This document shows positions 10,309-45,686 of a stretch of DNA of 52,539 bases, piece by piece (the stretch's first letter is position 1; the number at the start of each line of letters is the position of its first letter). The stretch spans positions 1-52,539 of the forward strand of contig NZ_FNIL01000018.1 of NCBI RefSeq assembly GCF_900103955.1, read 5' to 3'. This stretch comes from Alkalicoccus daliensis (GTDB lineage: Bacteria > Bacillota > Bacilli > Bacillales > Salisediminibacteriaceae). The translations under genes and the position numbers were made by a program. The notes under the pieces were generated by a model that worked only from the letters and a program-made list of their open reading frames with translations, did not search any database and had not been told where the DNA came from.

Positions 10309-10376
10309 TCGGTGTTGTTGCTCAGTAGAAACTCTGTTTCAGCCGGACCTGCCGTGGGCGGGCTCTTACACTAGCA
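10309..10376. repeat. Short copy of the dispersed repeat
   Basis: GTAGAAACTCTGTTTCAGCC, GGACCTGCCGTGGGCGGGCT and CTTACACTAG align with the inner part of the 17733 element (AATAGAAAACTTCACTGCAA, then CTGACCTGCCGTGG). It abuts and slightly overlaps the stop codon of the reverse-strand gene that ends at 10371. Confidence 0.55.
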
Positions 10377-11627
10377 GAATGAATCTTTTGATTTTGGTAC
10401 TGATAAGCCGAACAGCGGGCGCAGATACAGTGCCAGAAAAGTTCCGAGCAGTGCCATCACTCCCCAGATATATCCATGCAGGCTGAAGGAAGCAATGCCG
10501 CCGAAATAAGCACCGATATTGCATCCAAAAGCTAAACGGGCACCATAGCCCATAAGCAGGCCGCCAATGACAGCTGCTGCTACATTCTTTCCGTTAATAC
10601 TGGAAAAGTTAAATAAGCCGCCTGCAGCTGATGCTAAAAATGCGCCAATAATTACACCAAGGTTAAGCACCGTTGTAGTGTCAGCAAAAACAGAAGCTTC
10701 CAGTGCTGCTGCGTTATCTCCCTGCCAAAATCCCCAGCTGGCAACATCAAAGCCGAGAAAATCTGCAGCATGAGAGCCCCAGAGAGCAAAAGCGAAAGTA
10801 ACTCCCCAAGGTTCGCCCCGTGTCATCAGCGTCAGGGCATTCAGGACAGCGAGCACGATAGCTGCGGCAAACAGCGGCCAGGAGCCGCGCAGCATCCTTT
10901 TCCATCCTGAGGTGGAAGGTACAGGAGCCATTTTTGGAGGCTTTCTCTTTCTTTCCACCACGAGGGTAATCCAGGCAATAATTCCGAATAGTACAATAGA
11001 GATAAGCCAGGCGCCTCCAAATCCAAAACCGGTAGTTTCAGCGAGAGAAACTGCAGGGCCGTTTGGCATTTCATCCGTCCAGAAAGGCAGATGTGCTGCG
11101 CCTATAACCGAGCCGATGATAAAAAACAGCAGGGTAATAAACATGACGGTGCGGCCGGCTCCTACAGCAAACAGCGTGCCGGAGGCGCAGCCACCGCCAA
11201 GCTGCATCCCAATCCCGAATAAGAAAGCACCGACGAGCAGACTGGTACCAACAGGGAAAACATATCCGCTTACTTCCACATCAAAGAACGAAATACCAAA
11301 GGCAAGGATAGGAGCGAAGAGAGTAACGGCTGCAGCGAGCATGACCATATGGGAACGGATGGCCTGGCCATTTCCAACAGACATAAATCTGCGGAATGCT
11401 GACGTGAACCCGAATCGGGCATGGAATAATGTATAACCGAGCAGCAGGCCGAGGAGCAGCAGTACAGAATGCGTTGCTTCCTGAGTGAGGAGCAGATACA
11501 CTGCCAGCACAGCAGCAGCTGTTAATCCTCCAATTATTAATTTCATCTGTGGAGGTTTTAAGCCTGTATCAGGACGCTTTTCTACATCTTCCTGTGCACC
11601 CGCGGAATGCACATAAGTTTGAGCCAT
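10371..11627 (-). CDS. YeeE/YedE-family membrane transporter
   Basis: The product is 418 aa with about ten hydrophobic segments. Two conserved cysteine motifs mark the family: GIGMQLGGGCASGTLFAVG (about residues 140-158) and GYGARLAFGCNIGAYFGGIA (about 365-385). Related TsuA/YeeE proteins pass thiosulfate through a cysteine relay, and some YedE proteins are associated with selenium metabolism. Which substrate applies here is unknown. An AGGAGG site lies 7 nt upstream of the start. It is transcribed divergently from the candidate selenoprotein gene, 287 bp away. The C-terminal codons touch a dispersed repeat. Confidence 0.85.
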   Translation of the reverse strand: MAQTYVHSAGAQEDVEKRPDTGLKPPQMKLIIGGLTAAAVLAVYLLLTQEATHSVLLLLGLLLGYTLFHARFGFTSAFRRFMSVGNGQAIRSHMVMLAAAVTLFAPILAFGISFFDVEVSGYVFPVGTSLLVGAFLFGIGMQLGGGCASGTLFAVGAGRTVMFITLLFFIIGSVIGAAHLPFWTDEMPNGPAVSLAETTGFGFGGAWLISIVLFGIIAWITLVVERKRKPPKMAPVPSTSGWKRMLRGSWPLFAAAIVLAVLNALTLMTRGEPWGVTFAFALWGSHAADFLGFDVASWGFWQGDNAAALEASVFADTTTVLNLGVIIGAFLASAAGGLFNFSSINGKNVAAAVIGGLLMGYGARLAFGCNIGAYFGGIASFSLHGYIWGVMALLGTFLALYLRPLFGLSVPKSKDSFC

Positions 11628-11914
11628 AATAATACCTCCTATTCATAGTTATCTAATCAGGAATACGAAATTATTCTACGGGTGCATGGACCGGTTGTCA
11701 AAAATGATGATTTTATATTCATCTTAAATCAGTAGAGGCTGTTTTTAAAGAAAGCAACTTTGAAAAGAGTCTGTGAATGAGATATACATCATGCTGCAGC
11801 ACTCCCACAGATCAATATCGGAAGCCGGAATATCTGGCAGAAAATAAAAAAGCAGTTAACTTTAAAAGAGGCAGGAGAATGAGTATGATAAAAGAAAAGA
11901 GGAGGAATGAATAT

Positions 11915-12478
11915 ATGGAATTATCTTATAAGCTGGAAACTGAAAAACGCGAAAAAGTAACCTTTGATTCACTCCTGGGAGAAAGAGAAAAAGTAATTGT
12001 ATTTGTAAGGCATTTAGGCTGACCGATCTGCAGGAACCACCTTGCGCAGTTGCGCAGGAATCAGAATGTTTGGGAAAGCAGGAACGTGGAATTAATCGTG
12101 ATCACTCCATCCAATGGAGCGTATAATGCTGATTTCAAGAAAAAATTCGGGCCATTTCCGTTTTCATTTTATGGAGACCCAAAGCGAAAGGCTTTCCGTG
12201 GTTTAGGACATGTCACTATGCCGAAAGCAAAACTTTTAACTGCGGCCGCCGCTGCAGGTGTATCAGGAAGAGTGAAAAACTTCCTGCCGAAAGATAAACA
12301 GCAGCGCAGTTTTGTAGCAGATTCTATGCGTACACAGGATGTGTACATTCAGGGAGGCACTTGGATTTTTGATAAGCAAGGAATCCCGGTCTGGTCACAT
12401 ATTGATGATTCACCGGAAAATCATGCATCCATTGATGATGTAGAAGAAAAACTGCGGGAGCTCAAAGACAACAGTTAG
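11915..12478 (+). CDS. Peroxiredoxin-like (AhpC/TSA, Prx-like2) protein, candidate selenoprotein with in-frame TGA
   Basis: Translated straight through, the frame gives 187 residues with a single TGA (12020-12022) at residue 36. The context is VFVRHLG-[TGA]-PICRNHLAQL, exactly where this thioredoxin-fold family has the first cysteine of a CxxC (compare the UxxC of eukaryotic SelU/PRXL2). Downstream sequence is intact and conserved-looking (VELIVITPS, FPFSFYGDPKRKAFRGLG, GGTWIFDKQGIPVWSHIDD). GGAGGA lies 8 nt before ATG 11915. A SECIS-like hairpin follows the TGA. The alternative is a nonsense mutation of a Cys codon. TGA is an ordinary stop in neighbouring genes, so the genetic code is not altered. 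Confidence 0.75.
12020..12058 (+). promoter_or_regulatory. Putative bacterial SECIS element with recoded TGA
   Basis: After TGA 12020-12022, 25 nt separate it from the apical loop of a hairpin: stem CTTGCGC (12041-12047) with GCGCAGG (12052-12058), loop AGTT. A compact stem, a 3-14 nt loop with G in the first two positions and a 16-37 nt distance are the criteria I recall for bacterial SECIS elements, and all are met. Folding was done by eye. Confidence 0.55.
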
Positions 12479-12545: not shown

Positions 12546-12836
12546 ATGGATAAGCAGGTAGTGGCAGTTTTACAGTCCCTGGAGCAGAAAGAAGGAGTAA
12601 TCCGGGAGCTCGAATTAAAAAATGTAGCTCGTGAAGATGTGGAAGTGATTCATAGAGAAGATGAAGGTGCCCCTGATTATCAAAGCTTTTTTAAACAGGG
12701 AGATTATGTAGTTGTAGTAGAGTCAGAAAATGAAATTGGGAGAATTCCGGTAGAGCAGGAAGACACACAGAATGACAGGCGGACTCCCAAAGGCCACCAT
12801 CACAAGCCCCATCACCAAATGAAAGAAGGCTTTTAG
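12546..12836 (+). CDS. Small protein of unknown function with His-rich tail
   Basis: The product is 96 aa. I do not recognise the family with confidence. The N-terminus (KQVVAVLQSLEQKEGVIREL, then ELKNVAREDVEVIHRE) has the beta-alpha-beta rhythm of YflT/GS17M-like stress domains. The C-terminus, KGHHHKPHHQMKEGF, has five histidines in seven residues and could bind metal. GGAGAG lies 6 nt before ATG 12546; an upstream TTG at 12492 lacks a comparable site. It lies 67 bp after the peroxiredoxin-like gene, probably in the same transcript, and is closed by the terminator at 12851. Confidence 0.65.
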   Translation: MDKQVVAVLQSLEQKEGVIRELELKNVAREDVEVIHREDEGAPDYQSFFKQGDYVVVVESENEIGRIPVEQEDTQNDRRTPKGHHHKPHHQMKEGF

Positions 12837-17555: not shown

Positions 17556-17577
17556 GATGAAGTGTTAATTGAAGATC

Positions 17578-17698
17578 GGCGCCTCATATATCCTTGAGAA
17601 TAGGGCTCAAGAGTCTCTACCGGACCACCTTAAATGGTCTGACTATGAAGGCAGTTTTCTTAGTGATGCAAGCTGGAATTCTGCCTTCGTATTTTTTT
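17578..17698 (+). promoter_or_regulatory. Guanine-type purine riboswitch with terminator (guaA leader)
   Basis: The aptamer spans about 17578-17652, with P1 GCCTCATA/TATGAAGGC, the TCTCTACC core and GACTATGAAG at the 3' side. The J3/1 specificity base is C, which indicates guanine or hypoxanthine rather than adenine. The 3' P1 strand overlaps the terminator arm GAAGGCAG (17647-17654), which pairs with CTGCCTTC (17681-17688) before a T run. In this family ligand binding normally favours P1 and frees or blocks the terminator; here P1 and the terminator stem share bases, so the exact switch needs folding. guaA begins 460 nt downstream. Confidence 0.9.
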
Positions 17699-19778: not shown

Positions 19779-19802
19779 AAGCTTTGTTAAAAATAATGTC
19801 GA

Positions 19803-19981
19803 ATGTTCGTATAATGTTGGGAATATGGCCCAAGAGTTTCTACCAGACTGCCTTAAATGGTCTGACTACGAATAATGAAATTATTTTATGCAGGTGCTGT
19901 GGAACAGTCTGTATATTATTCCTTCATTATATTGTCAGATGATTCAGGGCCGTCCCAGGTAGAGGGGCGGCTCTTTTTATT
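19803..19981 (+). promoter_or_regulatory. Guanine-type purine riboswitch with terminator (pbuG leader)
   Basis: The aptamer is at about 19803-19876. P1 is TTCGTA/TACGAA, the core is GTTTCTACC, the P3 arm is CCAGAC...GGTCTG, and the J3/1 base in GACTACGAA is C (guanine type). A terminator follows at about 19948-19978: GGGCCGTCCC pairs with GGGGCGGCTC, then TTTTT. The start codon of the permease is 46 bp later. Confidence 0.9.
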
Positions 19982-22615: not shown

Positions 22616-22631
22616 AACAATAGATTAATAC

Positions 22632-22848
22632 GAAACCTCATATAATATCAGGAATACGGCCTGAGAGTATCTACCTGCGACCGCAAATCAGCAGACTATG
22701 AGGGACGAGATACATAATAGAAGAGAGACGAAGATGCAAGCTGTATCTTCTGCCTCGCTGTGCATGCAGGAGCATGTGCGATATTCTGACAAAGTCGTGT
22801 GTCTTATCGTTCCCTCAAACGTAGCAGGCGGACGGTAAGGCATTTTTT
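22632..22848 (+). promoter_or_regulatory. Guanine-type purine riboswitch with terminator (pur operon leader)
   Basis: The aptamer is at about 22632-22704: P1 CCTCATA/TATGAGG, the ATCTACC core, and C in GACTATGAGG (guanine type). The terminator is a long stem, TGTCTTATCGT (22800-22810) with ACGGTAAGGCA (22832-22842), then six T. GAGGGACGAGATA after the aptamer can pair with TATCGTTCCCTC in the terminator, a plausible antiterminator that P1 formation would prevent. Confidence 0.92.
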
Positions 22849-45357: not shown

Positions 45358-45544
45358 AACCCTTGTAACTCTTATTTGAGGCACACCGATCTTGCTCACA
45401 AAACTCAATAAGTGCAGAGTGATGCGCACAAAACGCAAGCTTCACTGGGAATTAAAACTAATTTTCCAGCATCATCCACTTCTCCTCTTTACTTTCCGGA
45501 CAGACTATGTTTAAAATGAAGATAACAATTCGATACGTAACAAT

Positions 45545-45686
45545 GCACTAGGGGTGCTGCAAGCTGAGAGACGGATGCGATCCGTTAACCCTTTGAACCC
45601 GAACTAGATAATACTAGCGTGGGGAAGTGCAGGTAGTTCATTTTTATGAATCCTGCATCTTCTTATTTTGGAAGATGCAATTTTTA
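45545..45686 (+). promoter_or_regulatory. TPP riboswitch with terminator (ykoFEDC leader)
   Basis: The aptamer at about 45545-45640 has the THI-box features: AGGGGTGCTG, GCTGAGAG, ACCCTTTGAACCCGAACTAG and ATACTAGCGTGGGGAAG. A terminator follows, TGCATCTTC (45654-45662) with GAAGATGCA (45671-45679) and T's. GTGCAGG at the 3' aptamer edge can pair with CCTGCA to form an antiterminator. TPP binding is expected to repress. Confidence 0.93.

What the first reader, a model, noticed from the sequence alone, without database searches (positions are those of the whole stretch)
11915..12478. Candidate selenoprotein: peroxiredoxin-like protein with TGA in place of the active-site cysteine codon
A complete 187-codon frame is interrupted once, by TGA at residue 36, in the context RHLG-x-PICR. 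The position is the first Cys of the CxxC of Prx-like2/AhpC-TSA proteins, where eukaryotic SelU has selenocysteine. Everything before and after reads as an intact, conserved protein with a good ribosome site, and a SECIS-like hairpin follows. Selenoproteins are rare in Bacillaceae, and automatic annotation would split or truncate this gene.
Basis: partly seen in the sequence, partly recalled or inferred. Interest (0 to 1): 0.88.

Follow-up and report, generated by a model that had tools for sequence, protein, structure and literature searches.

The report
Real selenoprotein, conserved across Bacillaceae relatives
The gene interrupted by a stop codon is very probably a genuine selenium-containing redox protein: the stop codon and the RNA hairpin that would let the cell read it as selenocysteine are kept in all the close relatives examined, and the genome carries the whole selenocysteine machinery.

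Summary
Frame 11915-12478 has one in-frame TGA (codon 36). (1) The genome (same GTDB genus as Alkalicoccus) has selA, selB, selD, tRNA-Sec(UCA) and mnmH on one contig. (2) Relatives do not carry Cys there: all homologues over 100 bits have TGA (20 of 20 in 35 family genomes, 69 of 69 in 397 order genomes, 12 of 12 in 398 class genomes, own gene included), as do 80 of 80 named loci; the sets overlap. The 69 order carriers are all among the 181 genomes with selA. A hairpin with AGUU loop follows the TGA; over 77 distinct sequences 98.7% of cells pair, with compensatory changes, far beyond synonymous codon choice, and it fits the published bacterial SECIS model. The protein is a PRXL2/SelU-like, SelL-related thioredoxin-fold redoxin (UPxC; Tyr replaces the second Cys in 8 of 78). 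I file it as a new subfamily of a known kind, without a close Cys form in the samples and mostly below NCBI's SelL-related cut-off. Selenoproteins are not rare here; this genome has four candidates. No experiment was possible.

The parts
11900..11905 (+). Shine-Dalgarno AGGAGG, nine bases before the ATG
   Evidence: sequence
11915..12478 (+). Selenoprotein gene, 187 codons with UGA=Sec at codon 36; PRXL2/SelU-like, SelL-related redoxin
12020..12022 (+). In-frame TGA read as selenocysteine 36
   Evidence: TGA in 20 of 20 homologues over 100 bits of the family scan, 69 of 69 of the order scan, 12 of 12 of the class scan, own gene included in each, and 80 of 80 named loci
12029..12031 (+). Cys39, putative resolving residue of the UPxC motif (Cys in 70 of 78, Tyr in 8 of 78 homologues)
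12041..12058 (+). bacterial SECIS hairpin: stem 12041-12047 with 12052-12058, loop AGUU 12048-12051, 25 nt after the UGA
10371..11627 (-). Divergent neighbour: YeeE/YedE-type sulfur transport protein (Cys form); not shown to be part of the system
   Evidence: PF04143 237.7 bits; NCBIfam NF033796 selenium metabolism YedE/FdhT 146.6 bits, below its cut-off of 350

Best explanation
The gene encodes a selenoprotein. A ribosome reaching UGA at codon 36 meets the AGUU hairpin 25 nt downstream; SelB with GTP and Sec-tRNA-Sec binds it and inserts Sec in place of termination (inferred from the conserved parts and from the known bacterial pathway; not shown by experiment). The product is a single-domain thioredoxin-fold redoxin of the PRXL2/SelU-SelL group. 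Sec36, at the position of Cys44 of human PGF synthase, is the attacking residue toward a peroxide or disulfide; it then forms a selenenylsulfide with Cys39, which a thioredoxin-like or low-molecular-weight thiol reductant reopens (inferred). The 8 of 78 homologues with Tyr at position 39 would need an external thiol instead, so the selenium rather than the CxxC pair is the indispensable part (inferred).
For: Machinery in the same genome: selA 518 bits, tRNA-Sec(UCA), selB 387 bits, selD 408 bits and itself with UGA at the Sec site. TGA conserved. In the order sample the gene is confined to selA genomes: 69 of 69 carriers among 181 selA-positive of 397, hypergeometric P 5e-28, not corrected for shared ancestry. 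SECIS: 98.7% of 539 cells paired, 33 cells changed on both sides, 0 of 500 shuffles for four of five measures and 22 of 500 for the fifth, the number of further pair types; 490 of 497 cells paired against at most 294 in 2000 synonymous resamplings, loop AGTT in 70 of 71 against at most 25; TTG for Leu in 81 of 82 and CAG for Gln in 82 of 82 distinct sequences. Fold: mean pLDDT 93.1, best PDB match human PGF synthase.
Against: No experiment. The hairpin of this one sequence folds only slightly better than shuffles and Rfam does not list it. G005 has the gene but no selA match; that assembly is 80% complete. Nine of the 28 selA-positive genomes of the family lack the gene, so it is not needed for the trait. 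Substrate and reductant are unknown, and the gene neighbourhood, conserved in part in 3 to 6 of 20 loci looked at, names no partner.
Confidence: 0.96

Rival explanations
1. A nonsense mutation or sequencing error in a Cys gene of this one strain.
For: Only the bare fact of an in-frame TGA.
Against: The same TGA in 69 of 69 order-level homologues above 100 bits and 80 of 80 named loci; frame, start and downstream protein conserved; no Cys orthologue found in the samples.
Confidence: 0.005
2. The TGA is read through as another amino acid (Trp or similar) or UGA is reassigned in these genomes.
For: A conserved in-frame TGA alone would allow it.
Against: TGA appears to be the terminal stop of 18 of 78 homologues (I took a TGA near the C-terminus as the end); the position is Cys in the structural relative; tRNA-Sec, selA, selB, selD and a SECIS are present and selA co-occurs.
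Confidence: 0.01
3. Deliberate termination: a regulated 35-residue product, with the downstream frame translated only under some condition, selenium acting as the switch.
For: Termination at UGA competes with Sec insertion in known bacterial selenoprotein genes (recalled); the window cannot exclude that both products occur.
Against: The predicted fold is one domain made of both halves; the 35-residue upstream product would be a fragment of it (inference).
Confidence: 0.02

Closest known systems
NCBIfam NF040769, SelL-related redox protein
   Same: Match over nearly the full model; the two genomes over the cut-off in the phylum scan (G648 and G780, 2 of 398) also carry TGA and an AGTT-loop hairpin.
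   Different: The window protein scores 85.6 bits, cut-off 120; 1 of 42 members of this group reaches about the cut-off. Matches below the cut-off in G445 and G761 have Cys.
PRXL2 / eukaryotic SelU (prostamide/PGF synthase, FAM213)
   Same: AhpC-TSA_2 domain in 42 of 42; Sec36/Cys39 aligns with Cys44/Cys47 of human PGF synthase, top hit by sequence profile and by fold.
   Different: 16-18% identity in the fold alignments; bacterial SECIS inside the coding region instead of a 3' UTR SECIS (the latter recalled); substrate unknown.
Eukaryotic SelL (UxxU diselenide protein)
   Same: Prx-like protein with Sec in the redox motif (passages of PMC2398784 and PMC3473315; the UxxU motif is recalled, the 2007 paper was not held).
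   Different: Here UxxC or UxxY, one Sec only.
Prx-like thiol:disulfide oxidoreductase selenoproteins (PF00578, UxxC/UxxU) in Table 1 of PMC13188914
   Same: UxxC redox motif, Prx-like domain.
   Different: That table lists no NF040769 or SelL-related row; no sequence comparison with its representative was made.

Membership tests
Bacterial selenoprotein | In-frame UGA conserved at a redox site | tested here: met
   69 of 69, 80 of 80
Bacterial selenoprotein | selA, selB, selC, selD in the genome | tested here: met
Bacterial selenoprotein | bSECIS model of PMC13188914 Fig. 2 legend: loop 3-9 nt, G in its first two positions (mostly followed by G/U), 16-37 nt after UGA, stem 4-16 bp, energy at most -7.5 | tested here: met
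   loop AGUU, 25 nt, 7 bp, -12.6 kcal/mol for the 45-nt stretch
Bacterial selenoprotein | Selenium incorporated in the protein | not testable with these tools
   needs 75Se or mass spectrometry
NCBIfam NF040769 SelL-related redox protein | Score over the curated cut-off of 120 bits | tested here: not met
   85.6 bits; 1 of 7 members tested by bits is over it
PRXL2/SelU | AhpC-TSA_2 domain with CxxC/UxxC at the start of the first long helix | tested here: met
PRXL2/SelU | Nearest relative in a tree of the superfamily | not tested
   no tree was built
Eukaryotic SelL | UxxU motif (recalled) | tested here: not met
   UxxC 70 of 78, UxxY 8 of 78
Classical peroxiredoxin (TxxC/TxxU) | Thr three residues before the peroxidatic Cys/Sec | tested here: not met
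   His33 in the window protein; His or Tyr at that place in the 78 motifs printed

The most novel reading that the evidence does not exclude
This is an obligately selenium-dependent enzyme family of Bacillota: in the sampled genomes no close homologue has Cys, some lineages dropped the resolving Cys yet kept Sec, and in the order sample the gene occurs only where selA does. Together with SelD and two further Prx-type selenoproteins it may help keep the Sec system in bacteria whose formate dehydrogenases are not selenoproteins, and its AGUU-loop SECIS is a distinct SECIS class shared by several redoxin families across Bacillota.
Probability: 0.35. Interest if true: 0.72.

Novelty: new member of a known kind. 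Interest (0 to 1): 0.58.

Why it matters
A selenoprotein subfamily spread over many genera of Bacillales (Alkalicoccus, Cytobacillus, Mesobacillus, Fictibacillus, Salipaludibacillus and others, record titles) mostly falls below the cut-off of the NCBI model that would recognise it, so its genes risk being annotated as truncated or split (how RefSeq annotates them was not checked). Search methods that rely on Cys/Sec pairs (passage of PMC9312934) could also miss it, because no close Cys form was found. A family in which Sec is kept while even the resolving Cys can be lost is a good test case for why Sec cannot always be replaced by Cys. In this genome selenium use rests on SelD and redoxins, not on formate dehydrogenase.

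Tried and rejected
A nonsense mutation, a reassigned code and a chance hairpin were considered and rejected (see rivals). Folding energy of the single sequence was tried and is weak evidence; Rfam gave no match at the hairpin. A search of the own genome with a covariance model of this hairpin gave the window site at 45.1 bits; the next was 15.6 bits, E 0.08 (150 of 1411 first-look candidates were scored), so the other selenoprotein genes of this genome seem to use other hairpins (selD has a hairpin that can be read as ACGCA-AGUUU-UGCGU; the C3 gene a different one). Four formate dehydrogenase matches in the genome carry no TGA.

Neighbours: one search took the longest ORF on each side in 20 of the 78 loci; a YeeE/YedE-like gene lies upstream in 3 (L012, L013, L017) and a MoxR-like ATPase gene (label recalled) downstream in 5 (L012, L013, L017, L019 and L074, the last from another family of the order). 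The 96-residue downstream protein is found in 6 of 20 family loci. No partner with a plain redox or selenium role came out.

Rows dropped: L132 and L139 were left out of the hairpin alignment because the motif search took a wrong site or missed it; both have TGA and an AGTT-loop hairpin. L099, L100 (missed by the motif search), L033 and L095 belong to other subfamilies and were also left out; L033 and L095 do not show the clean hairpin. Seven of the 84 remaining sequences were identical repeats, giving 77 rows. One search also listed G206 (47.5 bits, TGA plus TAG) and G311 (a 64-residue frame without stop), which look like remnants, and hits of 20-27 bits to other redoxins, most without TGA; these are not in the 69. 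Extra stops in some rows lie near the C-terminus and were taken as the terminal stop. In one search only the first 8 candidates of a genome were scored, so a weak Cys relative could have been missed. A distant full-length Cys-form relative is in that scan too: G1096, 48 bits.

Full report
Observation. The frame 11915-12478 (+) is as described: ATG with AGGAGG nine bases upstream, one TGA at codon 36 (12020-12022), then open to TAG. The mechanical ORF list splits it into an 81-residue and a 142-residue frame. Read through, it is an AhpC-TSA_2 / AhpC-TSA / Redoxin protein.

Machinery. The window is contig C24 of a 3.78 Mb assembly, 99.98% complete. On contig C15 lie mnmH (337 bits, cut-off 241), tRNA-Sec with anticodon UCA, selB (387 bits, cut-off 242), selD (408 bits, cut-off 125) and selA (518 bits, cut-off 268). 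The first condition for refutation (no selA/selB/selC) is not met. The genome is placed in the same genus as four Alkalicoccus species: the homologous genes of the same-genus genomes behind L016, L017, L018 and L024 are identical, over the core compared, to the named loci L192, L186, L203 and L232 (A. urumqiensis, chagannorensis, luteus, saliphilus).

The TGA column. In 35 genomes of the family, 21 have a match; the 20 over 100 bits (own gene included) all carry one TGA inside, and the 21st genome (G009) has only a distant redoxin at 21 bits without TGA. In 397 genomes of the order, drawn evenly from a larger group, 69 have a match over 100 bits and all 69 carry the TGA. In 398 genomes of the class, 12 matches of at least 190 bits (four of them from the order) all carry it; the next match, G1096 at 48 bits, is a distant Cys-form redoxin. 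Of 106 relatives in named genomes the best 80 were returned; 80 of 80 have TGA at this codon and 80 of 80 the AGTT loop. In the 78 genes the TGA falls at one motif, R[HY]xG-U-P. The second condition for refutation (sister strains with Cys) is not met; no Cys orthologue was found in these samples. Other distant Cys forms are in two genomes of the phylum (G445, G761) that match the NCBI SelL-related model at 71-81 bits and this group's own profile at 43-45 bits.

Co-occurrence. selA is over its cut-off in 181 of 397 order genomes, and all 69 gene carriers are among these (P 5e-28, without correction for shared ancestry). In the family, 19 of 28 selA genomes and 1 of 7 without selA carry the gene; the exception, G005, is 80% complete (Fisher P 0.016).

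SECIS. After the TGA the homologues keep a 7-bp hairpin with loop AGUU. Over 77 distinct sequences 98.7% of 539 cells pair and three pairs have changes on both sides (33 cells); 0 of 500 shuffles reach four of the five measures, 22 of 500 reach the fifth (further pair types); sliding the partner by 1-3 columns gives 15-60%. RNAalifold finds the same stem on its own, less the outermost pair. The stretch codes mostly for L[AT]QLR[EK], so I resampled synonymous codons: 490 of 497 observed cells pair against a mean of 268 and a maximum of 294 in 2000 resamplings; 64 of 71 full stems against a maximum of 4. Leu is TTG in 81 of 82 and Gln CAG in 82 of 82 distinct sequences. In one genome residues change to Met and His while the stem is kept by a paired change (L027). 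Spacing (25 nt), loop, stem and energy fit the bSECIS model in section 5 of PMC13188914 (section read whole). Weak points: the single sequence folds little better than its shuffles (z -1.24, 27 of 200), and Rfam lists nothing there.

Protein. AlphaFold2 gives mean pLDDT 93.1, pTM 0.89, with Sec36 just before the first long helix. The best PDB match by profile (9us9, E 1.4e-9) and by fold (9usa, E 1.9e-9) is human prostamide/PGF synthase, whose Cys44 and Cys47 align with Sec36 and Cys39. That protein is called SelU3 in a passage of PMC3473315. The window protein's only Cys/Sec residues are Sec36 and Cys39. Position 39 is Cys in 70 and Tyr in 8 of 78; 7 of 78 have no Cys at all. This is why I think Sec is the attacking group and the second Cys is dispensable in some lineages (inference).

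Other selenoproteins of this genome: SelD with UGA at its Sec site; a 168-residue redoxin RGSWUPAC on C3, with TGA also in three same-genus genomes (G001, G002, G004, the last with two copies) and Cys forms in G003, G009, G022, G025 (strong hits without a stop); and a peroxiredoxin with TPGU on C11. The four formate dehydrogenase matches have no TGA.

Novelty. NCBIfam holds a SelL-related redox family (NF040769) that matches over nearly its full length but below cut-off for the window (85.6 against 120 bits); 1 of 42 group members reaches an E-value equivalent to the cut-off. The 2026 review of prokaryotic selenoproteins has a table of 119 families, which I read (I also saw its outline, section 5 and passages, not section 7 part 3); it has no such row, and words beginning with 'bacill' or 'NF040769' are not in its main text. 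Of PMC5029168, PMC2398784, PMC1794560, PMC9312934 and PMC3473315 I saw passages only. Ten searches of the open-access library listed no title or abstract start that describes this family; subscription papers were not searchable. I therefore file it as a new member (subfamily) of a known kind.

Noticed in passing
G000:C3:32981-33487 (L159:2482-2988): Second selenoprotein candidate of the same genome: 168-residue redoxin with RGSWUPAC; TGA in three other same-genus genomes, no stop in G003, G009, G022, G025.
   Followed up: partly
G000:C11, L254:994-1455: Peroxiredoxin with TPG-U in place of TPGC, a third redoxin selenoprotein candidate of this genome.
   Followed up: partly
G000:C15, L002:12448-13515 (-): selD is itself a selenoprotein gene (KKAGUGCK); ordinary ORF calling starts it too late.
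   Followed up: yes
window 10371-11627 (-): Divergent YeeE/YedE-type protein with GCASG, where the selenoprotein form listed in PMC13188914 has GUxSG; best NCBIfam match is the selenium metabolism YedE/FdhT model, below its cut-off.
   Followed up: partly
window 12546-12836 (+): 96-residue protein gene of unknown function just downstream, found in 6 of 20 family loci searched including the window's own; no Pfam or NCBIfam match at the thresholds used.
   Followed up: partly
window 17564-17665, 19787-19888, 22618-22718 and 45540-45642 (+): Three purine riboswitches within about 5 kb and one TPP riboswitch.
   Followed up: no
L092 (G206), L093 (G311): Apparent remnants of the selenoprotein gene in two selA-positive genomes, a hint of loss.
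   Followed up: no
L033, L095, L105, L107, L108, L110, L149: Other redoxin subfamilies of Bacillota with UPxC; L105, L107, L108, L110 and L149 share a CAGTTG-centred hairpin sequence after the TGA, so the SECIS may be a wider class (by eye).
   Followed up: partly
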